Shown piece by piece: positions 10,768-52,474 of a stretch of 64,000 bases of DNA. A program made the position numbers and the translations under genes. How positions within the stretch are numbered: the stretch's first letter is position 1; every line of letters begins with the position of its first letter. A model generated the notes under the pieces. That model did not search any database. It was given only the letters and a program-made list of their open reading frames with translations, and was not told the origin of the DNA. This stretch comes from Baekduia soli (lineage in GTDB: Bacteria > Actinomycetota > Thermoleophilia > Solirubrobacterales > Solirubrobacteraceae): the NCBI RefSeq assembly GCF_007970665.1, contig NZ_CP042430.1, forward strand, positions 2,046,001 to 2,110,000, written 5' to 3'.

Positions 10768-10802
10768 GAGCGCCGCGTGCGGCATAGCGTCCGCCCCATT
10801 CC

Positions 10803-27893: not shown

Positions 27894-28274
27894 ATGGCCA
27901 AGATGTCCGGCGACTTCGACCTGCTGGCGGCCTCGCTGCGCGCCGACGCGCGCGACGTCGACGGGTTCTTCGACGTCCTGGTGGCCAAGCTCGGCGAGGT
28001 CTTCCCCGACGGCGTGGAGATCGAGCGCGGCGGCCTGCTCGGGCGCTCGGGCCCGAAGGCCGTCGCCGTGACGCTCGGCGACCGCCGCTACGAGGCCGAG
28101 CGCGCCCGTCGCACCGTGGTCTGCCGGCGGCGCACGGTCGTGCGCGGCATCGCGCTCAAGAGCGAGGATCTCGACGTCGACGCGTGGATCGACGCCCTCT
28201 CGGCCGACCTCGTCGACGAGGCCGCGCGCAGCGAGCGCGCCCGCGTCGCCCTCGAGGAGCTGCTCAACCCGTGA
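27894..28274 (+). CDS. Hypothetical protein, first gene of the YbjQ-like operon
   Basis: This 126-residue soluble protein starts at ATG 27894 or at ATG 27903. An N-terminal helix (FDLLAASLRADARDVDGFFD) leads to a beta-rich middle (AVAVTLGDRRYEAERARRTV) and a helical end (DAWIDALSADLVDEAARSER). No motif suggests a catalytic role. Its stop overlaps the GTG of the next gene (GTGA at 28271-28274), so it is translated together with the two YbjQ-like proteins and may work with them. Confidence 0.7.
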   Translation: MAKMSGDFDLLAASLRADARDVDGFFDVLVAKLGEVFPDGVEIERGGLLGRSGPKAVAVTLGDRRYEAERARRTVVCRRRTVVRGIALKSEDLDVDAWIDALSADLVDEAARSERARVALEELLNP

Positions 28275-29146
28275 GCGACGACGCCGCCCCCGTCATCCCG
28301 CAGGCGGCGCGCGAGCGGCTGGGGCGCCGGCGCACGCAGCAGGGCCCGGGCTTCGACTCGGCCCTCGGCGTCGGCGAGGCGCTGGCCGTGCGCGAGGCGG
28401 GGCTGCGTCCGGTCTGCCAGGTCATGGGCACGTCCTACTACCAGGTGGGGTGGCAGAACATGCCCTGGGGCTCGGCGCGCGGGGGCTGGTTCGGCGTGCA
28501 GGGCACCGACGGCCAGACCTTCGAGCTCGAGAGCCAGACCGACGCCTTCAACGAGGCCCGCCGCCTCGCGGTCGACCGCCTGCGCCAGGAGGCCGTCCTC
28601 GCCGGCGCCGACGCCGTCGTCGGCGTGCAGGTTCGCCGCAGCACGCGCGACTGGGCCGGCGACCTCGTGGAGTTCGTCGCCGTCGGCACGGCAGTGCGCT
28701 CCGAGCGCTACGACCTCGGCGACGAGCCGCTGCTGTGCAACCTCTCGGGCCAGGACGTCGCCAAGCTCGTGCGCCACGGCTTCTGGCCCGTGGGGATCGT
28801 CGGCGGCTCGACGGTCGCCTACGTCGTGACCGGCACCCGTCAGCAGTGGCGGTCCGGAGGCCTGCTGTCGGGCCGGCGCAACCAGGAGCTGCCCGACTTC
28901 ACCCAGGGCCTGTACGACGCCCGCGCGCTGGCGATGGAGCGCGTGACGCGCGGCGCCCACGAGCTGCAGGCCCACGGCGTCGTCGGCGTCCAGGTCGAGC
29001 GCTCGATGCACCCGCGCGAGCGCGAGGTCAACAACGTGACCTACCACGACATGATGATCACCCTCCACGTCCTGGGGACCGCGATCGTCGAGGTCGCCGA
29101 CGCGCCGGTGCCACCCGAGAAGTTCATCGCCCTGCCCCTGACCTGA
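28271..29146 (+). CDS. Tandem YbjQ/UPF0145-like heavy-metal-binding-type protein
   Basis: The 291-residue protein carries two diverged copies of a YbjQ-like unit. Each copy has a helix rich in arginine and glutamate followed by GADAVVGVQVRRS or HGVVGVQVERSM and then a strand with FVAVGTAV or LHVLGTAIV. YbjQ proteins normally hold one such unit of about 100 residues. Their role is uncertain; heavy-metal binding is only a family label. The gene is coupled to the small hypothetical gene upstream and lies 10 bp before a paralogue. Confidence 0.75.
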   Translation: MSDDAAPVIPQAARERLGRRRTQQGPGFDSALGVGEALAVREAGLRPVCQVMGTSYYQVGWQNMPWGSARGGWFGVQGTDGQTFELESQTDAFNEARRLAVDRLRQEAVLAGADAVVGVQVRRSTRDWAGDLVEFVAVGTAVRSERYDLGDEPLLCNLSGQDVAKLVRHGFWPVGIVGGSTVAYVVTGTRQQWRSGGLLSGRRNQELPDFTQGLYDARALAMERVTRGAHELQAHGVVGVQVERSMHPREREVNNVTYHDMMITLHVLGTAIVEVADAPVPPEKFIALPLT

Positions 29147-29156
29147 CGGAGCCCAC

Positions 29157-30017
29157 ATGGCCGACGAGGACCACGAGAGCACTCCCTACGACCCCACGAG
29201 CACCGCCGGGATCCCCGAGCACGGGCGCGAGCGCCTGGCCCGCATGCGCGAGCGCAGCCTGTTCACGAGCGACCTGTCGGTCAACGAGTTCCTGCTCGTG
29301 CGCGCCGCGGGCTTCGAGCCGCTCGGCCTCGTCGTCGGCTCGTCGATCTACCACATCGGGTTCCAGGCGAGCGCCTGGAGCAAGAACCAGGAGATGGACG
29401 TCCTGACCCAGGCGATGTACCACGCCCGGGAGCTGGCGATGACGCGCATGGAGGAGGAGGCCGACCAGCTCGGCGCCGACGGGATCGTGGGCGTGCGCCT
29501 GGACGTCAGCCGCCGCGAGTGGGGCAACGACCTCGCCGAGTTCGTCGCGATCGGGACCGCGGTGCGCCACCGCGAGGGCGAGCTTCACCGTGCGCCCAAC
29601 GGCCGCCCGTTCACGAGCGACCTCAGCGGCCAGGACTTCTACACGCTGCTGTCGGCCGGCTACCGGCCCGTCGGCATGGTGATGGGGACCTGCGTGTACC
29701 ACGTGGCCCACCAGGGACTGGGCAGCTGGATGAAGCGCGTGGGCCGCAACGTCGAGATGCCGAACTTCACCCAGGCGCTCTACGACGCGCGCGAGCTGGC
29801 GATGGAGCGCATGCAGGCCGAGGCGGAGGCCGCCGAGGCCGAGGGCATCGTCGGCGTCCAGCTCGTCGAGGGCAACCACGGATGGAGCTCGCACGTCCTG
29901 GAGTACTTCGCGGTGGGCACCGCGGTGATCCCGACGTCGGCCGACCACGAGATCCCACCGCCGACGCTCGTCCTCAACCTGGACGACACGCGCCAGAGCG
30001 GGTTCCGGGGGTTCTAG
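29157..30017 (+). CDS. Tandem YbjQ/UPF0145-like protein, paralogue of the preceding gene
   Basis: The 286-residue protein again has two YbjQ-like units: AMYHARELAMTRMEEEADQL with LGADGIVGVRLDVSRRE and EFVAIGTAV, then ALYDARELAMERMQAEAEAA with EGIVGVQLVEGNHG and YFAVGTAV. The N-terminal third of each half (FEPLGLVVGSSIYHIGF and YRPVGMVMGTCVYHVAHQ) is also repeated, so the whole protein is an internal duplication. It is clearly a duplicate of the gene before it, giving four units in tandem across the operon. The function is unknown. Confidence 0.75.
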   Translation: MADEDHESTPYDPTSTAGIPEHGRERLARMRERSLFTSDLSVNEFLLVRAAGFEPLGLVVGSSIYHIGFQASAWSKNQEMDVLTQAMYHARELAMTRMEEEADQLGADGIVGVRLDVSRREWGNDLAEFVAIGTAVRHREGELHRAPNGRPFTSDLSGQDFYTLLSAGYRPVGMVMGTCVYHVAHQGLGSWMKRVGRNVEMPNFTQALYDARELAMERMQAEAEAAEAEGIVGVQLVEGNHGWSSHVLEYFAVGTAVIPTSADHEIPPPTLVLNLDDTRQSGFRGF

Positions 30018-30069: not shown

Positions 30070-30113
30070 GTTCACCCCGCGGTCACAGCATCTTGGCCGC
30101 CCGTTCACAGAAC
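30070..30113 (+). promoter_or_regulatory. PHO box upstream of the PHP-glycosyltransferase operon
   Basis: Four 11-bp units run in phase: GTTCACCCCGC (30070-30080), GGTCACAGCAT (30081-30091), CTTGGCCGCCC (30092-30102, degenerate) and GTTCACAGAAC (30103-30113). The core and period match the ppk site. The box ends 55 bp before the start codon, which has a GAGGAG ribosome-binding site. The rest of the 151-bp intergenic region shows nothing else. Confidence 0.75.
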
Positions 30114-30168
30114 CCGGCCGCGTGCAGGCCAATCTCCTCGCAGCACATCCGATCACGAGGAGACCACG

Positions 30169-32454
30169 ATGACTCCCAGCCGGCCCGCCCGGGCCGACCT
30201 GCACTGCCACTCGACGGCCTCCGAGCTCTCCCGGCTCGGGGTCCAGCGGGCCCTCGGCCTGCCCGAGTGCGCCACGCCGCCCCAGGAGGTCCTCGAGCTC
30301 GCGCTGGCGCGCGGCATGGACTTCGTCACGATCACCGACCACGACACGATCGACGGCGTCCTGGAGATCGCCGGCGACCCGCGCGTCTTCGTCTCGGCCG
30401 AGCTCACGTGCTCCTTCCGCGAGGAGCCCCAGGCCGTCCACGTCCTCTGCCTGGGCATCACGCCCGACGAGTTCGCCCACCTCCAGGAGCGCTCGGACTG
30501 CGTGGAGTCCGTCGCCGACCACCTCGCCGAGAACGAGATCACCGCCGCGCTCGCGCACCCGTTCTACGCGGTCGGCGCGCCCCTGACGCCGCGTCACCGC
30601 CGGCGCCTGGCGCGCCTGTTCCCGATCTGGGAGACCCGCAACGGCGCCCGCGCCCGCGAGCTCAACGCGCCGGCCGCCGTCTACATCGAGACCCACGGCG
30701 GCATCGGCGTCGGCGGCTCGGACGACCACGCCGGCGTCGACATCGGGCGCACGTTCACCGAGACGCCGCCCGCGCACGACGTCGCCACGTTCCTGGCCCA
30801 CGTCCGGGCCGGCCGCGCGACGGCCCGCGGCGACCAGGGCAGCGCCGCCAAGTGGGCCCACGCGGCGATGGCGCTCGCCGTGCGCACGCACGGCGCGGCG
30901 GCCGGCGAGCCCGTCAGCGCCGCCACCGTCCTGCGCATGGTCCGGCGCGTGATGACCGAGGCCGACGCGCGCACCGGCGCCATCGGCGCCGACCTGCGGC
31001 CCGCCGACGCCGCCGGGCTGCTGCGGGCGTGGCTGGAGGCCGTGGAGCTCGGCGACCTGTCGCCGCGCGAGCTGCTGGCCGTCATGCAGGCCGACGACTT
31101 CCACCACAGCGTCCTGTTCCGCCGGGCGCGCCGCACGCATGAGCGCCGCCTGGCGCGTGCGGTCGACGCGCTGGCCGCCCGGGTCGCCCGCGACGGCGCC
31201 GCCGGCCTGGCCACGGGCGCCGCGGCGGTCTTCGACGCCTGCGTGGCGGCGATCCCCTACGCGCCCGCCGCCGCGTTCCTCGGGCGCGAGAAGAGCCGTC
31301 TCGCGGCCCGGGACGGGGACCCGCAGCGGGTCGCGCTCGTCGCCGACGGCGTCGGCGCGATGCACGGCGTGACCCACACGCTGGCCGAGCTGCGCCACCG
31401 CGGGGTGCCGGGCTTCGAGGTCGAGGTCGTCTGCACCGACCACATCGCCGACCGCCGCCTGAGCGCGGTGGCCGACGTCGAGGTCCCGTTCTACACCGGG
31501 CTGCAGGTCGGGGTGCCGAGCCTGCCGGCGATCGTCGAGGCCCTGGCCGAGGGCCGCTACGACCTCGTCCACGTCTGCTCGCCGGGGCCGGCGGGCCTGG
31601 CCGCGCTGCTCATCGCCCGGGTCATGGACGTGCCGGTCGTGGGCAGCTACCACACCGAGCTGGCCGCCTATGCGGGGCTGCGCTCGGGCGACCCCGGGCT
31701 GGAGGCGCTGGCGGGCACCGCGCTGGCCGCCTTCTACGGCCAGTGCGCGGTCGTGCTCTCACCCAGCGAGGCCAGCGACGCCGTGCTCGACGGGCTGGGC
31801 GTCGCCGCCGACCGCGTGGGCCGCTGGGACCGCGGCGTCGACACGGAGCGCTTCGGCCCGCACCGCCGCAGCGCCGGCCCGCGCCCGGGCGGTCGCGTCA
31901 CCGTCCTCTACGCCGGGCGCCTGACGCGTGAGAAGGGCGCCGACCTGCTGGCCGACGCGTTCCTGGCCGCCCGTGCGCACGATCCGCGGCTGCACCTCGT
32001 CCTGGCCGGCGACGGCCCCGAGGCCGGCGTCCTGGCCGACCGCCTCGGCGCCCATGCGACGCTGCTGGGCTGGCTGGAGGGCGACGACCTGGCGCGGGCC
32101 TACGCGGACGCCGACCTGTTCGTGTTCCCGAGCCGGACCGACACGTTCGGGCAGACGCTGCTGGAGGCCCAGGCCAGCGGCCTGCCCGTGGTCGCCGTGG
32201 CCGAGGGCGGCCCCTGCTGCATCGTCGCCGACGGGGTGACCGGCCTGCTGCGCCCGGCCGACACGGCCGCGCTGGCCGAGGCCGTCCGCGGGCTGGCCGC
32301 CGACCCCGCGCGGCGCCGGGCGCTCGGGGAGGCCGCCCGGGCGGCCGTGCACGAGCGGACGTGGGACGCCTCGCTGCTGCGCCTGGCCGCCGGCTACCAC
32401 CGTGCGCTCGGCGCCGGCTCGCGGACGTCGGAGCGGGTGCGCCGTGTCGCCTGA
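30169..32454 (+). CDS. PHP-domain/GT4 glycosyltransferase fusion
   Basis: The 761-residue protein starts with a PHP metal-dependent phosphoesterase domain (about residues 5-240): DLHCHSTAS, TITDHDTIDGV, LAHPFYAVG and GVGGSDDHAGVDIG hold the metal ligands. A helical spacer follows. From about residue 385 to the end is a GT-B glycosyltransferase of family 4: GAMHGVTHTLAELRHRGVPG, VGSYHTELAAYAG and the nucleotide-sugar site SRTDTFGQTLLEAQASGLPV. It resembles glycolipid mannosyl/glucosyltransferases that use diacylglycerol acceptors, but the acceptor is not proven. It has a PHO box and is followed by another glycosyltransferase (11-bp overlap). A role in replacing phospholipids with glycolipids under phosphate shortage is inferred. 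Confidence 0.88.
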   Translation: MTPSRPARADLHCHSTASELSRLGVQRALGLPECATPPQEVLELALARGMDFVTITDHDTIDGVLEIAGDPRVFVSAELTCSFREEPQAVHVLCLGITPDEFAHLQERSDCVESVADHLAENEITAALAHPFYAVGAPLTPRHRRRLARLFPIWETRNGARARELNAPAAVYIETHGGIGVGGSDDHAGVDIGRTFTETPPAHDVATFLAHVRAGRATARGDQGSAAKWAHAAMALAVRTHGAAAGEPVSAATVLRMVRRVMTEADARTGAIGADLRPADAAGLLRAWLEAVELGDLSPRELLAVMQADDFHHSVLFRRARRTHERRLARAVDALAARVARDGAAGLATGAAAVFDACVAAIPYAPAAAFLGREKSRLAARDGDPQRVALVADGVGAMHGVTHTLAELRHRGVPGFEVEVVCTDHIADRRLSAVADVEVPFYTGLQVGVPSLPAIVEALAEGRYDLVHVCSPGPAGLAALLIARVMDVPVVGSYHTELAAYAGLRSGDPGLEALAGTALAAFYGQCAVVLSPSEASDAVLDGLGVAADRVGRWDRGVDTERFGPHRRSAGPRPGGRVTVLYAGRLTREKGADLLADAFLAARAHDPRLHLVLAGDGPEAGVLADRLGAHATLLGWLEGDDLARAYADADLFVFPSRTDTFGQTLLEAQASGLPVVAVAEGGPCCIVADGVTGLLRPADTAALAEAVRGLAADPARRRALGEAARAAVHERTWDASLLRLAAGYHRALGAGSRTSERVRRVA

Positions 32455-33520
32455 GACGCTGGACCACGGTCACCTGACCCTGCGGCGCGGCGGGGCCGGC
32501 CGCGCGCGCCTGCGCCTCGTGCCTGCCGCACCACTGCGGATCGTCGACGTCGTCCCCGACGACGGCCCCGGCGCGCTGCGCACCTACCTCGACGCCAAGT
32601 CGCGCCTTGCCGCCCACACCGGCGAGCTGCACCACGACGTGCTCGTCCGGGGGCGGTCGCGCTCCCGCACCGCGCTCGCTGCGCGGCTGCGCGCGCTGGC
32701 GCCCGACGTGGTCCTGCTGCACGATCCGTGGCCGGCCCCGCTGGACCTCGTCGCCTGCGCCCGCGGGCTGGGGGCGCGGACCGTCGCGGTGCACCACGGC
32801 TCCAGTGAGGCCCAGGCGGCCGTGCTGCCCGGCCCGTCGCGGGCCCACCTGCCGGCCGTCCGCGCGCAGCGGCGCCGTCTGGCGCGCGAGGTCGACGCGG
32901 TCATGGGCCTTCCGGCGACGACCGCCGACAGCCGCCGCGTCGCCACCCTCGCCGTGGCGATGGGCGTCGACGACGCGTTCCGCCCGCGTGCCGACGTGCG
33001 CCGGGGCGATCATGTGCTGTATGTCGGGCGCCTCGCGCGGGGCCACGGGCTCTTCCGCCTCCTGGACGCGGCGGCCCGCAGCGCCGACCCGTGGCCGCTG
33101 CACCTCGTCGGCGCCGGGCCCCTCGAGGACGCCCTGCGCACCCGGGCCCAGCACCTGGGCCTCGGGCGCCGGGTCAGCGTCGCGCCCGACGTCCGGGATC
33201 GCGAGTGCCTCGCGCGCCGGATGGCGGCCGCACGCTGCGTCGTCGTGCCGGGGGCGCTGGAGCCGTTCGGGCTCGTCGCGCTGGAGGCCGCCGCCTGCGG
33301 CACGCCGGTCGCCGGCTGTCTCACGGCCCCGGCGCTGGGGCTCGTCGGCGGGCTCGGCCACCGCTTCGCGCCCGGCGACCCGACCGGCCTGGACCGGGCG
33401 ATCGCCGCCGCCCGCGCGGCCGGACCCGACGCCGAGGCGGGCGCCGTCCTGGCCTGGCGCCACGCCTGGGACCGCGTGCTGCGCGAGGAGCTGCGCCGGC
33501 TGCGGGAGCTGGCGTGCTGA
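32444..33520 (+). CDS. GT4-family glycosyltransferase
   Basis: The 358-residue GT-B protein begins at GTG 32444, inside the end of the PHP-GT gene. Its N-terminal Rossmann half contains RIVDVVPDDGPGALRTYLDA and VVLLHDPWPAPLDLV. The C-terminal half has LYVGRLARGHGLFRLLDAA, then the donor-site region VVVPGALEPFGLVALEAAAC with the E-x7-E glutamates. It probably adds a second sugar to the product of the upstream enzyme. The next gene starts within its last codons, so the three are one operon under the PHO box. Confidence 0.85.
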   Translation: MSPETLDHGHLTLRRGGAGRARLRLVPAAPLRIVDVVPDDGPGALRTYLDAKSRLAAHTGELHHDVLVRGRSRSRTALAARLRALAPDVVLLHDPWPAPLDLVACARGLGARTVAVHHGSSEAQAAVLPGPSRAHLPAVRAQRRRLAREVDAVMGLPATTADSRRVATLAVAMGVDDAFRPRADVRRGDHVLYVGRLARGHGLFRLLDAAARSADPWPLHLVGAGPLEDALRTRAQHLGLGRRVSVAPDVRDRECLARRMAAARCVVVPGALEPFGLVALEAAACGTPVAGCLTAPALGLVGGLGHRFAPGDPTGLDRAIAAARAAGPDAEAGAVLAWRHAWDRVLREELRRLRELAC

Positions 33521-34227
33521 GGCCGGGCCGCGGGGCCCTGGCCGTGTCCCTGCACGACGTCGAGCCCGCGACCTTCGAGCGCTGCGCGCTCATCCGCGAC
33601 TGGCTCGACGACCTCGGGGTGCACCGCGTGACGCTCCTGGTCATCCCCGCCCCGGACCTCCATCCCTTCCACGACCGCCGCCCGGAGCTCGCCGACTGGC
33701 TCGAGGAGCGCGCCGGGCTGGGCGACGCCATCGCCCAGCACGGCTTCCGGCACCGCGCCGTCCCCGGCCGCCGCCCGCTCGCGCGGCTGCACGCGGGAGC
33801 CGGGGCGGAGTTCGTGGGGCTCGACGGCGATGAGACGCGCCGCGCGGTCCTGGCGGGCCGCCGCGTGCTGCGCCTCGCCGGCATCGCACCGCGCGGGTTC
33901 GTGGCCCCCGGCTACGCCTACACCTCGGCGCTCCGTGACACGCTGGCGTCGACGTTCGACTGGTGGGCGGGGCTCGGCCGGCTGCACCGCGCGAACCGCT
34001 CCAGCACGACCGCCCCGGCGCTCAGCCTCGGCACGTCCACGCGCCTGGGGCGCTGGACGTCGCCGGTGCTCGTACGCGCGGGCGCCTACGCGGGCGGCGA
34101 GGTGCTGCGCCTGGAGATCCATCCGGCCGACCTCGACCACCCGCGCTGCGTGGGCGCGGTCGAGCGCGTCCTGGGCGCCGCGCGCGGGCGCGACGCGGTG
34201 ACCTACGACGACCTCGCCGGGCCCTAG
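33514..34227 (+). CDS. DUF2334-type polysaccharide deacetylase-like protein
   Basis: The 237-residue protein begins at GTG 33514, overlapping the previous gene by 7 bp. It shows the NodB-like pattern of the DUF2334 group: ALAVSLHDVEPATFE at the start (HD in place of the usual DD), VTLLVIPAPDLH, then IAQHGFRHRAVPG with the histidine ligands, and GFVAPGYAYTSALRDTL. A C-terminal EIHPADLDHP block carries the last histidine. It may deacetylate a sugar added by the two upstream transferases. No signal peptide is visible, so it acts in the cytosol. Confidence 0.85.
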   Translation: MLRPGRGALAVSLHDVEPATFERCALIRDWLDDLGVHRVTLLVIPAPDLHPFHDRRPELADWLEERAGLGDAIAQHGFRHRAVPGRRPLARLHAGAGAEFVGLDGDETRRAVLAGRRVLRLAGIAPRGFVAPGYAYTSALRDTLASTFDWWAGLGRLHRANRSSTTAPALSLGTSTRLGRWTSPVLVRAGAYAGGEVLRLEIHPADLDHPRCVGAVERVLGAARGRDAVTYDDLAGP

Positions 34228-34281: not shown

Positions 34282-34638
34282 ATGGCCGCCGTGCAAGCCC
34301 CCGTCCTGACCCCGCGCGAGCGCCGGCCCGGCGGCTGCTGCTCGCCCGCCGTCGAGCCGCAGCTGGGGCCGGAGGCGGCGGCCCACCTGGCCGTGCTGGC
34401 CAAGGCCCTGGCCGACCCTACGCGCCTGCGGATCGTCGACGCGCTGCGCACGTCGGCGCCCGAGGCCGTGTGCCAGTGCGAGCTGCTGCCGCTGTTCTCC
34501 ATGAGCCAGCCCGCGCTGTCCAAGCACCTCAAGATCCTCGTCAACGCCGGCGTGATCGGCACCGAGCGACGCGGACTCTGGGCCTACTACTACGTCCTCG
34601 ACGACTCCCTGGAGGAGCTCACCGCATGGCTGACGTGA
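34282..34638 (+). CDS. arsR: ArsR-family arsenic-responsive repressor
   Basis: The 118-residue winged-helix repressor has LAVLAKALADPTRLRIVDAL at the start of the fold and the recognition helix SMSQPALSKHLKILVNAGVI. The inducer site is VCQCELLPLF, the CxC expected in helix 3 of arsenite sensors. A further cysteine pair near residue 19 (GGCCSP) could take part. It is the first gene of the arsenic cluster, preceded by a palindromic operator, and its last 13 bases overlap the arsM start. It is released from DNA by As(III). Confidence 0.92.
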   Translation: MAAVQAPVLTPRERRPGGCCSPAVEPQLGPEAAAHLAVLAKALADPTRLRIVDALRTSAPEAVCQCELLPLFSMSQPALSKHLKILVNAGVIGTERRGLWAYYYVLDDSLEELTAWLT

Positions 34639-35417
34639 CCGACCCCTGCTGCGCGCCTGCCGACGCCGACGTCCGCGAGACGGTGCGCCGCAAGTACGCC
34701 GCCGCCGCGCTGGCCGCCGCACAGTCCGCGCGCGCGCCCGGCAACTGCTGCGGCCCGGTGGCCACCGCCGACGCCGCCGGCCGCCCGGTCTTCGGCAGCG
34801 TGCTGTACGACGACGACGAGGCCGGCTCCGCCCCCGAGGCGGCGGTCAGCGCCTCGCTGGGCTGTGGCGTCCCGACCGCGGTCGCCGACCTGCACGAGGG
34901 GGAGACCGTGCTCGACCTCGGCTCGGGCGCCGGCGCCGACGTCCTCATCTCCGCCGCGCGCGTCGGCGCGACCGGCCGGGCCATCGGACTGGACATGACC
35001 GACGAGATGCTGGCCCTGGCCCGCGGCAACGCCGAGCAGGCCGGGGCGTCCAACGTCGAGTTCGTCAAGGGCCATATCGAGGACATCCCGCTCCCCGACC
35101 GCTCCGTCGACGTCGTGATCTCCAACTGCGTGATCAACCTCTCCGGCGACAAGCCCAGGGTCCTGCGCGAGGTGGCCCGCGTGCTGGCGCCGGGCGGCCG
35201 CTTCGCCGTCTCCGACGTCATCGCCGACGAGGACATGGACGACGCCACCCGCGCCGACATGGCGCAGTGGACCGGCTGCATTGCGGGGGCGCTGACCCGC
35301 CGCGAGTTCGAGGACGCGCTGGCCGCCGCCGGCCTGACCGACGTCGAGATCCGCGAGACCCATCGCGTCCACGAGCACGCGGGCGCGGCGATCGTCCGCG
35401 CCCGCAAGGCCGGCTGA
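34626..35417 (+). CDS. arsM: Arsenite S-adenosylmethionine methyltransferase
   Basis: The 263-residue enzyme methylates As(III) with SAM. It shows the SAM motif VLDLGSGAGADVLISAARVG near residue 96, IGLDMTDEMLALAR, then the conserved cysteines in VVISNCVINLSGDKPRV and MAQWTGCIAGAL. The N-terminal region has two cysteine pairs (DPCCAP and GNCCGP), and LGCGVPTAVADL carries another. The set C-(N)-C plus WTGC matches ArsM and not an ordinary methyltransferase. It starts at ATG 34626, overlapping arsR, so translation is coupled. Confidence 0.93.
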   Translation: MADVTDPCCAPADADVRETVRRKYAAAALAAAQSARAPGNCCGPVATADAAGRPVFGSVLYDDDEAGSAPEAAVSASLGCGVPTAVADLHEGETVLDLGSGAGADVLISAARVGATGRAIGLDMTDEMLALARGNAEQAGASNVEFVKGHIEDIPLPDRSVDVVISNCVINLSGDKPRVLREVARVLAPGGRFAVSDVIADEDMDDATRADMAQWTGCIAGALTRREFEDALAAAGLTDVEIRETHRVHEHAGAAIVRARKAG

Positions 35418-35423
35418 GGGCCC

Positions 35424-36563
35424 ATGCGCCGTGGCGCCACGGTCGCGCCGGCGCCGGCCGCCGATGGCCCGGCGGTCATTGGGCGCCTGTCGACGCTGGA
35501 CCGGTTCCTGCCGTTGTGGATCGCGGCGGCGATGGCCGCGGGCCTGGCGCTGGGCGCGATCTTCCCCGGCTTCGACGACGCCCTCGACGCGCTGCGGGTC
35601 GGCACGGTCTCGCTGCCCATCGCCGTTGGCCTGTTGTTGATGATGTACCCGGTGCTGGCCAAGGTCCGCTACGAGGAGCTCGGGCAGATCACCGGCCAGC
35701 CGCGGATGATCGGTGCGTCGATCGCGCTGAACTGGGTCGTCGGGCCGCTGCTGATGTTCGCGCTGGCCTGGATCTTCCTCTCGGGCCATCCCGAGTACCG
35801 CACCGGCCTGATCATCGTCGGGCTCGCGCGGTGCATCGCCATGGTGCTGATCTGGTCGGACCTGGCCAAGGCCGACGCCGAGGCGACGGCGCTGCTGGTG
35901 GCCATCAACTCGCTGTTCCAGATCCTGGCCTTCTCCCTGCTGGGCTGGCTCTACCTGACCGGGCTGCCGCAGCTGCTGGGCCTGGACACCCAGGGCCTGG
36001 ACGTCTCGCTGTGGGAGGTGGCGCGGACCGTGCTCATCTTCCTCGGCATCCCGCTGGCCGCCGGGTTCCTGACGCGCCGGGTGGGCATCGGCCGGCGCGG
36101 CGAGGCCTGGTACCGCCAGCGCTTCCTGCCGCGCATTGGACCCATCGCCCTCTACGGGCTCCTGTTCACGATCGTGATGCTGTTCGCCATCCAGGGCGAC
36201 GCCATCACGTCGGCGCCGCTCGACGTGGTGCTGATCGCGGTGCCGCTGCTCGTCTACTTCCTGATGATGTTCTTCTCCAGCTTCTGGCTGGGACGCGCCC
36301 TCGGCCTCGGGTACGCGCGGACGGCCACGCTCGCCTTCACCGCGGCGTCGAACAACTTCGAGCTGGCGATCGCGGTCTGCGTCGGGGTCTTCGGGGCCAC
36401 GTCGGGGCAGGCGCTGGCGGGCGTCGTGGGCCCGCTCATCGAGGTCCCGGTGCTCGTGTCGCTGGTCTACGTGGCGCTGTGGCTCGGTCGCCGCTGGTTC
36501 GGGACCGGCGAGGTCGACGGCCCGCCCGTCGCGGGCGTCCCCGGCCGCGCGGAGGTCGCCTGA
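35424..36563 (+). CDS. acr3: Acr3-type arsenite efflux permease
   Basis: The 379-residue membrane protein has about ten hydrophobic segments, e.g. FLPLWIAAAMAAGLALGAIF, IAVGLLLMMYPVLAKV, IVGLARCIAMVLIWSDLA and FFSSFWLGRALGLGY. The conserved cysteine lies in LARCIAMVLIW and the conserved glutamate late in the protein in GPLIEVPVLVSLVYV, both typical of Acr3. It exports As(III) driven by the proton motive force. The start at ATG 35424 follows arsM by 6 bp and its stop overlaps the arsC fragment (TGATG). Confidence 0.92.
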   Translation: MRRGATVAPAPAADGPAVIGRLSTLDRFLPLWIAAAMAAGLALGAIFPGFDDALDALRVGTVSLPIAVGLLLMMYPVLAKVRYEELGQITGQPRMIGASIALNWVVGPLLMFALAWIFLSGHPEYRTGLIIVGLARCIAMVLIWSDLAKADAEATALLVAINSLFQILAFSLLGWLYLTGLPQLLGLDTQGLDVSLWEVARTVLIFLGIPLAAGFLTRRVGIGRRGEAWYRQRFLPRIGPIALYGLLFTIVMLFAIQGDAITSAPLDVVLIAVPLLVYFLMMFFSSFWLGRALGLGYARTATLAFTAASNNFELAIAVCVGVFGATSGQALAGVVGPLIEVPVLVSLVYVALWLGRRWFGTGEVDGPPVAGVPGRAEVA

Positions 36564-36798
36564 TGGCCACCGTCCTGTTCGTGTGCCGGGCCGACGCCGG
36601 GCGCTCGCAGATGAGCGCCGCGCTGCTGCGACGGGCGGCCGCCGGCCGCCATCACGCGCTGGCGGCCGGCAGCAAGGCCGACCCCGGGGGCCACGTGCAC
36701 CCCCAGGTCGTCCGGGCCTCCTCGCCGAGCTCGATCGCGCCGCCGCCATGACGACCCTGCCACCGCCAGTCACACCCCGGGAGCCCGCCGTACCATGA
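36563..36798 (+). pseudogene. arsC: Truncated and frameshifted arsenate reductase (LMW-phosphatase type)
   Basis: The frame opens as a thioredoxin-type ArsC with the phosphatase loop [11 protein letters not shown] (C-x5-R-S) near residue 8 and the region [19 protein letters not shown]. After VVR the coding signal shifts by one base near 36720 to [18 protein letters not shown], ending at 36798, where the stop overlaps the next start. Even when joined it has only about 78 residues against about 130 for ArsC. It lacks the aspartate loop and redox cysteines of the C-terminal half. It is unlikely to reduce arsenate on its own. Confidence 0.75.
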
Positions 36799-37823
36799 CC
36801 CGCATCGCCATCAACGGCTTCGGCCGCATGGGCCGCCTCGCGCTGCGCGCGCTCTGGGGCCGGCCTGACCTCGGCCTCGAGGTCGTGCACGTCAACGAGG
36901 CCAAGGGCGGCGCGGGCACCGCCGCGCACCTGCTCGAGTTCGACTCCGTCCACGGGCGCTGGGCCCGCGAGGTCTACGGCGAGGGCGGCATGCTGCGGAT
37001 CGACGGCCACGCCCTGGGCTTCTCGGAGGCCGCCGAGCCGGGCGCCGTGGCCTGGAACGAGCACGGGGTCGAGCTCGTGCTGGAGTGCTCGGGCCGCTTC
37101 CGCACCATGGACGCCCTGGCCCCGTACTTCGCGCGCGGGGTCGGCAAGGTGGTCGTCGCCGCGCCGGTCGAGGACGACCGCGCGCTCAACGTCGTCGTCG
37201 GCGTCAACCACGACCGCTACGACCCCGCGGTGCACGACGTCGTCACCGCCGCCTCGTGCACGACGAACTGCCTGGCGCCGGTCGTCAAGGTGCTGCACGA
37301 GGGGCTGGGCATCCGCCGCGGCTCGATCACGACGCTGCACGACATGACGAACACCCAGACCGTCGTCGACGCGCCGCACAAGGACCTGCGGCGGGCCCGC
37401 GCGGCCTCGGTGTCGCTCATCCCGACCACGACGGGGTCGGCCACGGCGATCGGGCTGATCTTCCCCGAGCTGCAGGGCAAGCTGGACGGGCTCGCGGTGC
37501 GCGTCCCGCTCGTGAACGCCTCGCTCACCGACGCGGTCTTCGAGGTCGCCCGGCCCACGACGGTCGACGAGGTCAACGGGCTGCTGGCCGCGGCCGCGGC
37601 CGAGGGGCCGCTGGCCGGGATCCTCGGCTACGAGGAGCGCCCCCTGGTGTCGGTGGACTACGTCGACGACCCGCGCTCGGGCGTCGTCGACGCGCTCTCG
37701 ACGCTGGTCACCGACGGGACCCAGGTCAAGGTGCTGGCCTGGTACGACAACGAATGGGGCTACGCCAACCGCATGGTCGAGCTCGCGGGCATCGTCGCGG
37801 CCGGGGAGGCCGGCGGGCGATGA
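36795..37823 (+). CDS. ArsJ-associated glyceraldehyde-3-phosphate dehydrogenase
   Basis: The 342-residue enzyme starts [18 protein letters not shown] and has the catalytic cysteine in [18 protein letters not shown] near residue 155. The substrate-binding stretch [14 protein letters not shown] and the C-terminal [20 protein letters not shown] complete the fold. It is one gene away from acr3 and directly before arsJ, the known pair in which GAPDH uses arsenate in place of phosphate to make 1-arseno-3-phosphoglycerate. This is therefore a dedicated arsenate-detoxification copy, not the glycolytic one. It overlaps arsJ by 4 bp. Confidence 0.93.
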
Positions 37824-39094
37824 GCGCAGCCCCGAGCGCCGGGGTCACGCGGCCCCGTGGGGACCTGCGCAACTACGCGATCGTCACCGGCGCCTACTGG
37901 GCCGACACGATCGCCGACGGCGCCAGCCGCATGCTGGTGCTGTTCTTCTTCTACGAGCGGGGCTACAGCCCGTTCAAGGTGGCGATGCTGTTCCTCTTCT
38001 ACGAGGTCTTCGGCATCATCACCAACCTGGTCGGCGGGTTCGTCGCCGCCCGCTTCGGCCTCAGGGCGACGCTGCTGATGGGCCTGGGGACCCAGCTCGT
38101 GGCGCTCGGGATGCTCGCCGTCGTCCCCGCCGGCTGGCTCGTGGTGGCCTACGTGATGGCCGCACAGGCGCTGTCGGGCATCGCCAAGGACCTGACGAAG
38201 ATGAGCTCCAAGAGCGCGGTCAAGCTCGTCGTGCCCGGCGACGCCCCCGGAGCGCTCTACAAGTGGGTCGCGATCCTCACCGGCTCCAAGAACGCGCTGA
38301 AGGGCGTCGGCTTCTTCCTGGGTGCGCTGCTGCTCAGCGTGATCGGGTTCCGCAGCGCGCTGGCCGTGCTGATGGTGCTGGTCGCCACCGGGCTGGTCAC
38401 GGTGGTCGTCGCGATGCGGGGCGACCTCGGCCGTCCCGACGCCAAGGCGAAGTTCCGCCACATGTTCTCCAACACCCGCGCCGTCAACGTCCTGGCGGGT
38501 GCACGCATCTTCCTGTTCGCCTCGCGGGACGTCTGGTTCGTCGTGGGCCTGCCGGTGTTCTTCCGCACCGAGCACGGCTGGTCGTTCTGGATGGCGGGCG
38601 GCTTCCTCGCGGTCTGGACGATCGGCTACGGCGTCGTGCAGGCCGCTGCACCGAACCTCCTGCGGCGACGGTCGGCGCGCGCGGGCGGCGATCCCGACGG
38701 GCGGACGGCGACGGGCCTGGCCTTCGTCCTGGCGCTGTTCCCGGCGGCGATCGCGGCGACGATGGCCGCCGGTGCCGACCCGGTGACGGTCATCGTCGTG
38801 GGCCTGCTGGCGTTCGGCGTCGTCTTCGCCCTGAACTCCGCCGTGCACTCCTACCTCATCCTGGCCTACGCCGAAGGCGACAAGGTCGCCATGAACGTCG
38901 GCTTCTACTACATGGCCAACGCTGGCGGGCGCCTGGCGGGCACGGTGCTCTCCGGGGCGCTGTACCAGTGGCAGGGCCTGCAGGCCTGCCTGTGGGCCTC
39001 GGCCGCGTTCGTGCTGGCGGCGGGGGCGTTGTCACGGCTGCTGCCCGGCGAGGCACCGAGCGCGACGCCGGGTCCTCAGCCGGCGTTGTTGTAG
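37820..39094 (+). CDS. arsJ: ArsJ organoarsenical efflux MFS permease
   Basis: The 424-residue major facilitator protein opens [20 protein letters not shown] and has about 12 hydrophobic helices, including [20 protein letters not shown] and [36 protein letters not shown] is a highly characteristic ArsJ stretch. It exports 1-arseno-3-phosphoglycerate made by the adjacent GAPDH, so the pair removes arsenate without reduction. Its 3' end overlaps the convergent phosphoesterase gene by 19 bp. Confidence 0.93.
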
Positions 39095-44852: not shown

Positions 44853-44893
44853 TGCGCCGCAGACTAGATGGGCGACGGACGCCCGAACCGCTC

Positions 44894-44948
44894 GTTCACC
44901 GCTTGTGCACACGCCGGAAACAACCTCACAACAGGTTGTGCACCTGTG
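44894..44948 (+). promoter_or_regulatory. PHO box between pstC and pstS
   Basis: Five 11-bp units can be phased: GTTCACCGCTT (44894-44904), GTGCACACGCC (44905-44915), GGAAACAACCT (44916-44926), CACAACAGGTT (44927-44937) and GTGCACCTGTG (44938-44948). The first two carry the GTTCAC-like core and the others are degenerate. It lies between divergent pstC and pstS and could drive both. Confidence 0.7.
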
Positions 44949-45005
44949 GACCGTGATGCTCGCCCCCGACAACGAACACCCTCACTCGAGGCGAAAGGGA
45001 ACAAC

Positions 45006-46040
45006 GTGAACCGCAGTAGGTTCCTCGGTCTTACGCTCGCGGTCCTGACCGCGAGCGCGTCGGGAGGCATCGCGTCCAGCGCGATGGCCTCCGACGCCAA
45101 CGGCTCGCTCACCGGCGCCGGCTCCACCCTCGTAGCACCGCTGATGAGCAACTGGGCTCAGGACTTCGAGGCCAGGCACAGCATCACGGTCACCTACGGG
45201 GCCGTCGGCTCCGGTGCCGGGATCTCGCAGATCTCGGCCCGCACGGTCGACTTCGGGGCGTCCGACGCTCCGCTGACGCCGGCGCAGGCGCAGACCTGCA
45301 ACGGCTGCGTGCAGGTTCCCTGGGGGCTGACGGCCACCGCGGTCGCCTTCAACGTCAAGGGCGTCAAGCGCCTCAACCTGAGCCCGGCCATCGTCGCCAA
45401 GATCTACCTGGGCACGATCACCAACTGGAACGATCGCGGGATCAAGAAGCTCAACCCGGGCGTCAAGCTCCCCAACCTGGGGATCACCCCGATCTACCGC
45501 AGCGACGGATCGGGCGACACGTACGCCTTCACCGACCTGATGCAGCGGGTCAGCGCTCCCTGGAAGGCGAAGGTCGGCAACGCGACGGCCGTGAGCTTCC
45601 CCAAGGGCGTCGGCGGGAAGGGCAACGACGGCGTGACGGCGGTGCTCGGCTCGACCAACGGCGGGATCGCCTACATCTCGGCGGCCTACGTCATCGCGCA
45701 CGGGCTCAGCGTCGCGGCGCTGCAGAACCAGGCCGGGAAGTTCGTGTACCCGAACCTGAAGAACATCTCGGCGGCGGCGAGCGTCGTCAAGCGCGTCCCG
45801 GCGAGCAACGAGATGCACATCGTCAACCCGCCCAAGCGCCTCAAGCTCGCCTACCCGCTCTCGACGTTCACGTACGCGATCGTGCCGAAGAGCTCGCCGA
45901 AGGCCAGCTCCATCCGGCTCTTCGTGCTGTACGCGATGGGCATCGGCCAGAAGTTCGGCCCGGCGCTGGACTTCGCCCCGATCCCGGGCGTCGTCTACAA
46001 GGCTGGCGTGGCCACCGTCAACCGGCTCCAGCAGGGCTGA
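45006..46040 (+). CDS. pstS: Phosphate-binding protein PstS (first copy)
   Basis: The 344-residue protein has a signal peptide (FLGLTLAVLTASASGGIASS) without a clear lipobox cysteine. The PstS fold follows: GAGSTLVAPLMSNWAQDF, the phosphate-binding stretch GSGAGISQISARTVDFGASD, IYLGTITNWNDRGIKKLNPG, and the second site YRSDGSGDTYAFTDLMQRVS and GKGNDGVTAVLGSTNGGIAY. All ligand serine, threonine and aspartate positions appear present. GTG 45006 follows GAAAGGGA. It captures phosphate for the divergent PstCAB. It differs from the second copy in lacking a lipobox, so it may be free or held otherwise. Confidence 0.93.
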   Translation: MNRSRFLGLTLAVLTASASGGIASSAMASDANGSLTGAGSTLVAPLMSNWAQDFEARHSITVTYGAVGSGAGISQISARTVDFGASDAPLTPAQAQTCNGCVQVPWGLTATAVAFNVKGVKRLNLSPAIVAKIYLGTITNWNDRGIKKLNPGVKLPNLGITPIYRSDGSGDTYAFTDLMQRVSAPWKAKVGNATAVSFPKGVGGKGNDGVTAVLGSTNGGIAYISAAYVIAHGLSVAALQNQAGKFVYPNLKNISAAASVVKRVPASNEMHIVNPPKRLKLAYPLSTFTYAIVPKSSPKASSIRLFVLYAMGIGQKFGPALDFAPIPGVVYKAGVATVNRLQQG

Positions 46041-46077
46041 CGGTCACCGGCCACCGCACCGCGGTCACCGGGCCGGT

Positions 46078-46139
46078 GTGGGACCTCTCGGGTCCCGCGC
46101 CGGCCCTCGGTGCGTCCGGGGACGGCTCAGGGCCGTCCC
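46078..46139. terminator. Hairpin cluster between convergent pstS and CYTH genes
   Basis: Two stem-loops lie between and over the stops: GGGACC-TCTCG-GGTCCC near 46080, and GGGACGGC-TCAGG-GCCGTCCC at 46119-46139, an 8-bp perfect stem. There is no T-run, as usual in very GC-rich genomes. The position between converging genes suggests a bidirectional terminator. Confidence 0.5.
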
Positions 46140-46584
46140 GACGTCGCCAGCGTCTGGTTCGCGTATCGAGGATCGCCGGTGACCTCGCGCTCCACCCACG
46201 CGGGGGGGCGAAGGCACGGGCGGCGGCCTCGTCGGCGAACTCGACCTCGAGGGTGCGCAGGCCCTGCAGCGCGCCCTCGTAGACGTCGAGCTCGAGCACG
46301 ACGCCCGGGCCGGCCTGCGTGCTGTGGCGGGTCTTGACCACGCGACGACCCTCGGTCAGCGCCCACAGCGCGTCGAAGCGGGCGGACTCGATGGCCAGCT
46401 CCTCCTCGACCCGCACGAGGCCCGGCGCGGACTTGACCGTCAGCGTCGCCCTGCGGTCGCGCCGGCGGACGCGCACCTCGACGTCGGGCGTGATCGCCAG
46501 GTAGCCCTGCTCGATCCGCTGGGCCGACCACGTGCCGAGGTCGTCCGGCGGCTGCGCCACGAGGAACTTGCGCTCGATCTCCAC
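46127..46584 (-). pseudogene. CYTH-domain triphosphate tunnel enzyme, broken by a -1 frameshift in a C7 run
   Basis: The gene begins MEIERKFLVAQPPDD, with the ExExK motif that defines CYTH/triphosphate tunnel enzymes, and continues EVRVRRRDRRATLTVKS and VLELDVYEGALQGLRTLEVE. Near 46204 the frame slips within CCCCCCC (minus strand) after AFAPP, and the expected tail AWVEREVTGDPRYANQTLA is read in the next frame to the stop at 46127. One C is probably missing. Uncorrected, the frame would instead run to 46018. The short CYTH proteins hydrolyse inorganic triphosphate or similar substrates, which fits a phosphate island. About 153 residues after correction. Confidence 0.78.
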
Positions 46585-46608
46585 GAGGAGGCCGATGATG
46601 CCAGCGCG

Positions 46609-47232
46609 TCAGCGCCGGCGCTTGAGCGAGATGCCCTCCAGGACGTGGGCGACCTTCTCGCAGGCGTCCACGCTCTGCTCGAGGGTCTCGAAGATGTCCT
46701 TCCACCGGATGACGACCATCGGGTCGATGCCCGTGGCGAACAGGGAGGCCAGCGCCTCGCGGCTCAGGCGGTCGCCCTCGTTCTCCAGCCGGTGGATCTC
46801 GACCAGGTGGGGCGCCAGGTCGGCGCCTGAGCGCAGCGTGCGCAGCGCGCGGGCCACCTGCTCGCCCGCCCCGACGAGCACGTCGGCGATCGCGCCGGCC
46901 TGCTCCATCGGCGCCTCGACGGCGTAGAGGACCAGCTCGTCGGCGGCCTGCTCGGCGTAGTCGACGATGTCGTCCAGCGTCGTGGCCAGCAGGTGGCCGT
47001 CGGCGGGGTTCATCGGCGGGCGGCCCGTCCCGCCGCCGTTGAGGCGGTGGATCAGGTCGTGGGTGATGCGGTCGCCCTCCTGCTCGCAGAGCAGGAGGTC
47101 GCGGGCGAGATGGGCGTGCTCCGGGTAGTCGGCGAGCAGGTCGCGCAGCAGCAGGGTGGCCCGCTGCACGTTGCGGCCGGACTCCTCGAAGAGCTCGAAG
47201 ACCCCGGTGTCAGTTGAGCGGAAGAGCGCCAT
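46609..47232 (-). CDS. DUF47/PhoU-like protein
   Basis: The 207-residue helical protein shows the DUF47 pattern: LFRSTDTGVFELFEESGRNV, then EGDRITHDLIHRLN near residue 53, TLDDIVDYAEQAADELVLYA and the second copy of the metal-site helix, LENEGDRLSREALASLF. The E-x-x-D repeats bind metal in PhoU-like bundles. DUF47 proteins usually sit beside a PiT low-affinity phosphate transporter, but none is in this window. The start ATG 47232 was preferred over a longer frame. It is divergent from the receiver-less regulator with a PHO box between. Confidence 0.88.
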   Translation of the reverse strand: MALFRSTDTGVFELFEESGRNVQRATLLLRDLLADYPEHAHLARDLLLCEQEGDRITHDLIHRLNGGGTGRPPMNPADGHLLATTLDDIVDYAEQAADELVLYAVEAPMEQAGAIADVLVGAGEQVARALRTLRSGADLAPHLVEIHRLENEGDRLSREALASLFATGIDPMVVIRWKDIFETLEQSVDACEKVAHVLEGISLKRRR

Positions 47233-47285
47233 CCGCCGCCGAGCGTAGGTGGGCGGCCCGCGATCGGCCAAGGTCTTCACGACTC

Positions 47286-47318
47286 GTTCACAACGGGTTC
47301 ACCGGACGGTAACCGCCC
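47286..47318 (+). promoter_or_regulatory. PHO box between the DUF47 gene and the receiver-less regulator
   Basis: Three contiguous units, GTTCACAACGG (47286-47296), GTTCACCGGAC (47297-47307) and GGTAACCGCCC (47308-47318), give a clear 11-bp direct repeat. Units two and three differ from those of the ppk box at only two positions. The box ends 30 bp before the regulator start, so it should control that gene and perhaps the divergent DUF47 gene. Confidence 0.8.
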
Positions 47319-47348
47319 ACCGGGGCTCCGGCCGGATCCTCCAGGACG

Positions 47349-47717
47349 ATGGAGGCTGCACACACAGGCGAGGTCCGCGACGTCCTGCTCGCCGGCGAGC
47401 TCGAGATCCGCCCGCAGGACGGGCTGGTGCTCGCCGCCGGCCGCGCGCTGACGCTCTCGGTCCGGGAGTTCGGGCTGCTTGTCGCGCTCGTGCAGCGGAC
47501 GGGGCGCATCGTCTCCCGCGCGGAGCTCTATCGCCTCGTCTGGGGCGGCGAGCTGCGCGACGGCGACCGGTCGATCGACGTCTACGTCCACAAGCTGCGC
47601 GTCAAGCTCGAGACCGCACTGCCCGCGTGGGCCTTCATCCACACGCATGTGGGGTTCGGCTACCGGTTCACCCCGGAGCCTTCACACCTCTTTCACAACT
47701 CGTCGACATCGCGGTAA
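47349..47717 (+). CDS. OmpR/PhoB-type winged-helix regulator lacking a receiver domain
   Basis: The 122-residue protein is only a PhoB-type DNA-binding domain: LTLSVREFGLLVALVQRTGR, ELYRLVWGGELRDGDRSIDV with the recognition helix VYVHKLRVKLETALP and the wing IHTHVGFGYRF. It is closely related to the C-terminal domain of the full-length regulator at 52475-53320. With no receiver it cannot be switched by phosphorylation. It could compete for PHO boxes or act by level alone. Its own PHO box lies upstream and the pstS2 box overlaps its 3' end. Confidence 0.88.
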   Translation: MEAAHTGEVRDVLLAGELEIRPQDGLVLAAGRALTLSVREFGLLVALVQRTGRIVSRAELYRLVWGGELRDGDRSIDVYVHKLRVKLETALPAWAFIHTHVGFGYRFTPEPSHLFHNSSTSR

Positions 47718-47723
47718 CAGGAT
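47666..47723 (+). promoter_or_regulatory. PHO box upstream of the second pstS
   Basis: Four units run at 11-bp phase: CTTCACACCTC (47680-47690), TTTCACAACTC (47691-47701), GTCGACATCGC (47702-47712, degenerate) and GGTAACAGGAT (47713-47723). A further GTTCACC lies at 47666. Part of the box overlaps the end of the regulator coding sequence, and it ends 57 bp before the pstS start. Confidence 0.7.
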
Positions 47724-47780
47724 GAGGGCGTGGCCACGTCAGCCTGCCCGGCGACACAACGATCAAGGAGCAGTGCAGAC

Positions 47781-52345: not shown

Positions 52346-52403
52346 CCCGGCTGCGGAGCCGCCCACACCGTGCGGTCGTGCGGACCGTCACGATCTTTCG
52401 GGT

Positions 52404-52432
52404 GTGAACATCCTGAGAACAGCGCAGGGAAC
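52404..52432. promoter_or_regulatory. Possible reverse-oriented PHO box before the phoB-like gene
   Basis: GTGAACATCCT (52404-52414) and GAGAACAGCGC (52415-52425) are in 11-bp phase, with another GGAAC at 52428-52432. The GAAC core is the complement of GTTC. GTGAACATCC also occurs near the phosphoesterase gene. A TACACT hexamer near 52460 could be a -10 element. The rest of the 129-bp gap shows nothing else. Confidence 0.45.
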
Positions 52433-52474
52433 TCGACCTTCGTCGACCCCCGCGGCGCTTACACTGCTGCGCAG

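What the first reader, a model, noticed from the sequence alone, without database searches (positions are those of the whole stretch)
30070..34227. PHO-box operon of PHP-GT4 fusion, GT4 and DUF2334 deacetylase
Two glycosyltransferases and a deacetylase under a PHO box suggest a glycolipid made in place of phospholipid when phosphate is short. A PHP phosphoesterase domain fused to the transferase could remove a phosphate from the lipid acceptor first, giving two steps in one protein.
Basis: inference. Interest (0 to 1): 0.6.

Follow-up and report, generated by a model that had tools for sequence, protein, structure and literature searches.

The report
Phosphate-controlled fused phosphoesterase-glycosyltransferase lipid operon
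A soil actinobacterium carries a three-gene set, placed under the phosphate-starvation switch, whose first protein joins a phosphate-removing enzyme to a sugar-adding enzyme; it probably swaps phosphate-containing membrane lipids for an amino-sugar lipid when phosphate runs short.

Summary
Three overlapping genes (30169-34227) encode a PHP-GT4 fusion, a second GT4 and a DUF2334 deacetylase behind an actinobacterial PHO box (11-nt repeats at 30070, 30081, 30103). The box recurs upstream of relatives: 57 of 78 loci at 2 mismatches or fewer, against under 1% of controls; 34 of 80 loci carry other phosphate genes. The presumed PHP metal ligands are invariant in 67 sequences and the predicted fold is PHP. 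The GT half groups with DAG glycosyltransferases of the phosphate-starvation PlcP-Agt type, where a phosphoesterase gene of unrelated fold precedes the transferase. Best reading: a fused, non-homologous counterpart of PlcP-Agt making an amino-sugar glycolipid. PHO control is well supported, a lipid acceptor likely, the amino sugar probable; the PHP substrate is inference only. Distant fusions show no PHO box (0 of 8), so the fusion is older than, or independent of, that control.

The parts
30070..30113 (+). PHO box: 11-nt repeats at 30070, 30081 and 30103, with a weak unit at 30092
   Evidence: sequence; 1 mismatch over 12 fixed bases; motif and third repeat at +33 conserved in relatives
30123..30135 (+). 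-10-like element TGCAGGCCAATCT at fixed spacing after the third repeat
   Evidence: same spacing in 21 of 58 sequences at 4 mismatches or fewer (consensus taken from the same set)
30157..30162 (+). ribosome-binding-site-like GAGGAG
   Evidence: sequence, 6 nt before the ATG at 30169
30169..32454 (+). PHP-GT4 fusion protein, 761 aa
30169..30843 (+). PHP metallohydrolase domain (about residues 1-225); presumed ligands H12 H14 D57 H58 E78 H91 H130 D185 H187
   Evidence: residues invariant in 67 of 67; fold; family scans; assignment of ligands recalled from the PHP family
30844..31320 (+). helical linker domain (about residues 226-384), function unknown
   Evidence: DSSP of models; no Pfam match
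31321..32451 (+). GT4 glycosyltransferase domain (residues 385-761)
   Evidence: Pfam, PDB profile and fold matches, tree
32444..33520 (+). second GT4 glycosyltransferase (GT2), 358 aa, GTG start overlapping the previous stop
   Evidence: separate branch in the tree
33514..34227 (+). DUF2334 polysaccharide-deacetylase-like protein, 237 aa, GTG start overlapping the previous stop
   Evidence: Pfam 75.4 bits and NCBIfam NF053788 85.8 bits, cut-off 280; conserved HD..P, QHG..H and HPaD motifs in 30 sequences

Best explanation
A phosphate-starvation operon that rebuilds membrane lipid. A PhoP-type regulator binding the PHO box turns it on (inferred from the conserved operator). The fusion works as a one-protein counterpart of the PlcP-Agt pair: the PHP half removes phosphate from a phospholipid or phosphatidic acid and leaves diacylglycerol (inferred, the least certain step); the GT4 half transfers a sugar, probably N-acetylhexosamine, from a nucleotide sugar to that lipid (inferred from clade and neighbours). 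In this genome GT2 probably adds another sugar and the DUF2334 enzyme removes the acetyl group, giving an amino-sugar glycolipid with little or no phosphate (inferred). Rough shares: PHO control 0.85, lipid acceptor 0.7, amino sugar 0.6, PHP supplying the acceptor 0.4.
For: Operator conserved in 57 of 78 loci against 0.8% of shuffles and 0.9% of internal windows, third repeat at exactly +33 in 36 of 57. At least one phosphate gene in 34 of 80 loci; in some the fusion sits between ppx or pst-phoU and ppk-PhoU_div-pit. All 18 PHP-fused GTs form one clade (98/98) within a group (97/87) holding an Agt2-like protein, two GTs preceded by a calcineurin-like phosphoesterase gene, and an MgtA-like protein. 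PHP ligands invariant in 67 of 67 and kept in distant fusions, H91 to D in 2 of 8. Deacetylase present in 17 of 51 genomes with the fusion and 1 of 70 without, p about 8e-7. PIG-L, an unrelated de-N-acetylase family, directly follows the fusion in 3 of 3 fetched loci of one distant lineage. No BtaA or PF13444 (OlsB-type) match in this genome, so no other phosphorus-free-lipid route was seen among those tested.
Against: No lipid substrate is shown for the PHP half; its nearest folds are enzymes of nucleotides and small molecules or of unknown substrate. The genome has 7 PAP2 matches above cut-off, so another source of DAG is possible. 34 of 51 genomes with the fusion lack a detectable DUF2334 gene. 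None of 8 distant fusions has a PHO box. A Solirubrobacter strain with the operon shows an unidentified aminophospholipid and no glycolipid in its description, growth not phosphate-starved as far as the passages say.
Confidence: 0.42

Rival explanations
1. GpgSDF-like amino-phospholipid: the operon makes glucosaminyl-phosphatidylglycerol or a GlcN-phosphoinositide, changing membrane charge under stress; the lipid keeps its phosphate and the PHP half does something else (for example dephosphorylating PGP to PG).
For: Best NCBIfam matches of the GT half and of the deacetylase are GpgS (128 bits) and GpgD (86 bits). A strain carrying the operon has an unidentified aminophospholipid. In P. aeruginosa GpgS and GpgD act in this order.
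Against: Both scores are far under the cut-offs (480, 280), and the GpgS model scores an Agt2-like protein 135 and an MgtA-like protein 134 bits, so it does not discriminate. No flippase gene follows in the window operon. Making more phospholipid derivatives fits PHO control poorly.
Confidence: 0.18
2. Synthase plus phosphatase: the GT4 half glycosylates a phosphorylated acceptor (inositol phosphate, glycerol phosphate or another small molecule) and the PHP half then removes the phosphate and drives the reaction; a deacetylase follows, as MshA, a phosphatase and MshB do in mycothiol synthesis (pathway recalled).
For: Best solved match of the GT half by profile and by fold is MshA, and sucrose-phosphate synthase is also high. 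MshA model scores are higher for the fusions (86 and 101 bits) than for Agt2-like (76) or MgtA-like (43) proteins. PIG-L, the family of MshB (recalled), follows the fusion in one lineage.
Against: The tree puts the GT half with lipid GTs, though no MshA sequence was in that tree. No MshA above cut-off and MshC only 262 bits against a cut-off of 485 in this genome, so mycothiol itself is unlikely. PHO control is not expected for such a solute.
Confidence: 0.15
3. By-product clearance: the PHP half hydrolyses UDP, UMP or a related nucleotide released by the GT, recovering phosphate and relieving product inhibition; the lipid acceptor comes from elsewhere.
For: Near folds include a C. violaceum enzyme with bound AMP and RNase AM; 3',5'-nucleoside bisphosphate phosphatase is a weak NCBIfam match in 59 of 67 members. 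PAP2 phosphatases that could supply DAG exist in the genome.
Against: These are weak superfamily matches far below the curated cut-offs; nothing ties the PHP half to UDP.
Confidence: 0.12
4. Envelope polysaccharide or secondary-polymer modification unrelated to membrane lipids, merely switched on by low phosphate (as teichoic acids are replaced by teichuronic acids in Bacillus, recalled).
For: Glycoside hydrolases (GH31 divergent in 37 of 66 loci, MGH1-like GH in 16 of 80) and BacA in 5 loci are neighbours in relatives.
Against: GT clade is that of lipid GTs; no polymerase or exporter gene in the window operon.
Confidence: 0.13

Closest known systems
PlcP-Agt lipid renovation in phosphate-starved Proteobacteria (PMC8528852, PMC4796936, passages read)
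   Same: Pho box; GT4 transferase of the same broad clade; phosphoesterase placed before the transferase; phosphate-starvation setting
   Different: Phosphoesterase is a PHP domain, not a calcineurin-like PlcP, and is fused to the GT; a deacetylase and a second GT follow; product not shown
GpgSDF of Pseudomonas aeruginosa, glucosaminyl-phosphatidylglycerol (PMC12713373, abstract and sections read)
   Same: GT4 followed by a COG3233/DUF2334-type deacetylase
   Different: No PHP domain; scores below both cut-offs; no flippase gene in the operon; P. aeruginosa product is a phospholipid
HexSDF with UgtA of Clostridioides difficile, aminohexosyl-hexosyldiradylglycerol (PMC11898633, abstract and outline read)
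   Same: Two GT steps plus a deacetylase would give an amino-sugar diglycosyl lipid
   Different: No PHP domain and no PHO control reported in what I read; sequences not compared here
PHP metallohydrolases of the CehA/McbA, RNase AM and nucleoside-bisphosphate phosphatase kind
   Same: Fold and metal-ligand pattern
   Different: Scores below family cut-offs; fused to a GT4; substrate unknown
Mycothiol MshA
   Same: GT4 fold; GlcNAc transfer followed by dephosphorylation and deacetylation (route recalled)
   Different: Family cut-off not met; MshC not above cut-off in this genome

Membership tests
Actinobacterial PHO regulon (PhoP, 11-nt direct repeats) | Two or more 11-nt direct repeats upstream of the gene | tested here: met
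   conserved in 57 of 78 relatives; repeat length as in Streptomyces (PMC7866108, passages)
Actinobacterial PHO regulon (PhoP, 11-nt direct repeats) | Binding by the regulator and induction at low phosphate | not testable with these tools
   needs footprint and expression data
PHP metallohydrolase superfamily | PHP fold and metal ligands | tested here: met
   Z 20.3 to 3e38, 197 aligned, 3.0 A; ligands invariant; PF02811 in 45 of 67 members, although the window protein alone misses the Pfam cut-off
PHP metallohydrolase superfamily | Phosphoesterase activity | not testable with these tools
   assay needed
PlcP-Agt pathway | GT of the Agt clade | tested here: met
   same supported group (97/87) as the Agt2-like and plcP-type-linked GTs; the group also holds MgtA-like GTs, so it does not fix the sugar or acceptor
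PlcP-Agt pathway | Calcineurin-like PlcP linked to the GT | tested here: not met
   PHP domain instead; a plcP-type query found nothing in the genome, without positive control
PlcP-Agt pathway | Phosphorus-free glycolipid at low phosphate | not testable with these tools
   lipid analysis needed
GpgSD (GlcN-phosphatidylglycerol) | NCBIfam equivalog cut-offs NF053787 (480) and NF053788 (280) | tested here: not met
   128.1 and 85.8 bits; GpgS score not specific
GpgSD (GlcN-phosphatidylglycerol) | Flippase gene gpgF as third gene | tested here: not met
   deacetylase is followed by an arsR-type gene
DUF2334 / COG3233 deacetylase-like | Pfam PF10096 above cut-off | tested here: met
   75.4 bits, cut-off 26
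DUF2334 / COG3233 deacetylase-like | De-N-acetylation of a sugar | not testable with these tools
   shown for GpgD in P. aeruginosa, not here
Mycothiol synthesis (MshA) | TIGR03449 cut-off 462.5 and MshC in the genome | tested here: not met
   88 bits for the fusion, best 151 in the genome; MshC best 262 bits, cut-off 485

The most novel reading that the evidence does not exclude
A single fused enzyme carries out both chemical steps of phosphate-starvation lipid exchange: a PHP domain, standing in for PlcP without homology to it, strips the phosphate from a phospholipid or phosphatidic acid, and the attached GT4 caps the freed DAG with GlcNAc, which is then deacetylated. The result would be a phosphorus-free, positively charged glucosaminyl glycolipid in Solirubrobacterales, and, as far as I recall, the first PHP enzyme acting on lipids.
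Probability: 0.25. Interest if true: 0.78.

Novelty: new variant of a known kind. Interest (0 to 1): 0.58.

Why it matters
Lipid renovation under phosphate starvation is best described in Proteobacteria, with a recent case in M. tuberculosis (PMC12722247, abstract and passages). This would show how a deep, soil-dwelling actinobacterial order may do it: with an unrelated phosphoesterase fused to the transferase and probably an amino-sugar end product. The fusion makes the link between phosphate removal and sugar transfer directly testable in one protein. I found no paper on a PHP-GT4 fusion in three searches of an open-licence library; subscription papers were not searched.

Tried and rejected
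Rejected: GpgS membership from the top NCBIfam hit, because lipid GTs of other specificity score as high. Mycothiol synthesis: no MshA or MshC above cut-off. A first count of GH31 neighbours (80 of 80) was an artefact, since the reference ORF reads into the antisense of the PHP gene; recounted with the GH31 part only it is 37 of 66 loci with over 2.5 kb upstream.

Led nowhere: plasmid search with the deacetylase (no match); plasmid search for full-length fusions (0 of 83 records cover 80% of the query); a plcP-type query in the genome (nothing, no positive control). The helical linker has no named relative; it was not searched alone.

Dropped rows: one search examined 78 of 80 loci (L073 and L081 have too little upstream). 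A1 and A2 hold the window and 66 of 80 relatives: 13 left out as cut, frameshifted or of odd length, L033 as a duplicate of L032. The phosphate-neighbour count (34 of 80) has no computed chance control. The deacetylase count of 18 genomes leaves out G382 (E 3.6e-4). The fusion is counted as present in 51 of 121 genomes by PHP hits above 200 bits, two of them partial (G368, G378). The genome-contig scan kept the best 80 of 278 relatives, so more distant ones were not read. The -10-like consensus was taken from the sequences in which it was counted.

Full report
What is there. The window lies in a 5.2-Mb genome; close relatives of the fusion among named records are Solirubrobacterales. Three genes at 30169-32454, 32444-33520 and 33514-34227 overlap by 11 and 7 nt. 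They encode a PHP-GT4 fusion, a GT4 and a DUF2334 protein. The next gene is arsR-like (34282), so the operon probably ends at 34227.

The operator. From 30070 stand GTTCACCCCGC, GGTCACAGCAT, a weak unit and GTTCACAGAAC in an 11-nt register. Streptomyces PHO boxes are 11-nt direct repeats (PMC7866108, passages). The two-repeat motif occurs 11 times in the window at up to 2 mismatches against 2.0 expected, and 16 times in the genome at up to 1 mismatch against 1 for the reversed pattern. Other window sites precede ppk, lie at a PstS-like gene, and lie between a PhoU-like gene and a PhoB-like DNA-binding gene. Upstream of relatives of the fusion, 57 of 78 loci have the motif at up to 2 mismatches, against 0.8% of shuffles and 0.9% of 703 internal windows. 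In these 57 a third repeat within 1 mismatch lies at exactly +33 in 36, and almost never at other offsets. A -10-like element follows at fixed spacing in 21 of 58 (consensus from the same sequences).

Neighbours of relatives. 34 of 80 loci hold at least one gene of phosphate metabolism; of the 48 with over 4 kb on both sides, 24 do (no chance control computed). In one group the fusion sits between ppx or pst-phoU and ppk, PhoU_div and pit. Of 58 loci with over 2.2 kb downstream, 16 have the second GT and 17 the DUF2334 gene, so both are optional. Over all 80 loci the table shows the deacetylase without a second GT in 8 and the second GT without deacetylase in 5; L082 has both though its fusion is frameshifted. 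In 121 genomes of the order, the deacetylase is present in 17 of 51 with the fusion and 1 of 70 without (Fisher p about 8e-7); by the coordinates it lies within about 4.5 kb in 14 of the 17.

The fusion. The full model has mean pLDDT 89.5 and a model of residues 1-384 has 91.8. The N-terminal domain matches solved PHP enzymes: BVU_3505 (Z 20.3), BAD_1165, TM0559, PsfC, a C. violaceum enzyme with bound AMP, RNase AM. The presumed metal ligands are invariant in 67 sequences. In 8 distant fusions (33-42% identity in the GT half) they are kept too, except H91 replaced by D in two. This argues for an active PHP enzyme. The GT half matches MshA best among solved structures. In a tree of 37 GTs all 18 PHP-fused ones form one clade (98/98), inside a group (97/87) with an Agt2-like protein, two GTs that follow a calcineurin-like phosphoesterase gene, and an MgtA-like protein; GT2 groups elsewhere. 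No MshA or GpgS sequence was at hand for the tree. The name Agt2 for the L135 protein rests on its place after cerN, plcH and plcR and on my recall that PA0842 lies there; the MgtA name likewise rests on synteny and recall.

Reading by analogy. In P. aeruginosa PlcP and two Agt transferases replace phospholipids by glycolipids under phosphate stress (PMC8528852, passages). In Sphingomonas and Roseomonas a phosphoesterase gene stands before a related GT; I take it as PlcP-type from position and recalled annotation habit. The fusion has the same order with an unrelated phosphoesterase. This is an argument about what it works like, not about membership.

The amino sugar. The nearest described relatives of the deacetylase act on GlcNAc-phosphatidylglycerol (GpgD; PMC12713373, abstract and two sections); HexSDF of C. 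difficile makes an aminohexosyl-hexosyl lipid (PMC11898633, abstract and outline). Scores here are below the cut-offs, and the GpgS score does not discriminate. A second line does not depend on these scores: in one distant lineage the gene directly after the fusion is PIG-L, another de-N-acetylase family, in 3 of 3 loci fetched (L110, L112, L113), while DUF2334 matches lie near L107 and L109. No such match was seen at L108, L111 or L114. Two unrelated deacetylases beside one partner suggest that the partner transfers an N-acetylhexosamine.

Against. No PHO box precedes any of the 8 distant fusions, though PhoD genes lie near two of them (L108, L114). So the fusion is not tied to PHO control everywhere. 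The genome has PAP2 phosphatases. Two thirds of the genomes with the fusion have no detected DUF2334 gene. A Solirubrobacter strain with the operon (L032, L033) shows an unidentified aminophospholipid and no glycolipid in its description (PMC10722151, passages), which would fit a GlcN-phospholipid as well. Conexibacter woesei's main polar lipid is phosphatidylinositol (PMC3035278, passage). BtaA and PF13444 searches in the genome were empty, with positive controls in other genomes.

Verdict. The best reading is a PHO-controlled lipid-glycosylation operon, working in parallel to PlcP-Agt with the phosphoesterase fused on, and probably ending in an amino-sugar lipid. The PHP substrate is the open question and is directly testable.

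Noticed in passing
window 10735-12968, 44868-48896, 50676-53320: Much of the phosphate regulon is in the same window: ppk behind PHO repeats, two PstS-like proteins, PstB-like ATPase, PhoU-like (DUF47) and PhoB-like regulators.
   Followed up: partly
window 47349-47717: A 122-aa ORF with only the regulator DNA-binding domain (Trans_reg_C, no receiver), divergent from the PhoU-like gene with PHO repeats between them; matches to it occur in 12 of 80 relatives' loci.
   Followed up: no
window 34282-39094: Just downstream lies what looks like an arsenic set: ArsR-type regulator, SBF/ACR3-type transporter and GAPDH, with ORFs resembling a methyltransferase and an MFS carrier (names recalled); arsenate is a phosphate mimic.
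   Followed up: no
window 28190-30017: Two consecutive proteins, each with two YbjQ-type stretches, just upstream of the PHO box.
   Followed up: no
L037:3739-6543 and L029:10547-11713: In relatives a GH31 gene is divergent from the fusion (37 of 66 loci) and an MGH1-like glycoside hydrolase matches in 16 of 80 loci, mostly after the deacetylase or the second GT. Neither is explained by the lipid reading.
   Followed up: partly
L066, L067, L091, L096 (also L023, L063; L047): PF04185 phosphoesterase (phospholipase C family) matches near the fusion in 6 loci and BacA/UppP matches in 5; L066, L067, L091 and L096 have both.
   Followed up: partly
L117:6155-8167, L118:5706-8300: PHP-free relatives of the GT are fused to a C-terminal GDSL lipase in two other actinobacterial genomes, another GT-plus-lipid-enzyme fusion.
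   Followed up: no
L083: A record titled Bifidobacterium breve MAG carries the operon at 68% identity; it groups with Solirubrobacterales and looks mislabelled.
   Followed up: no
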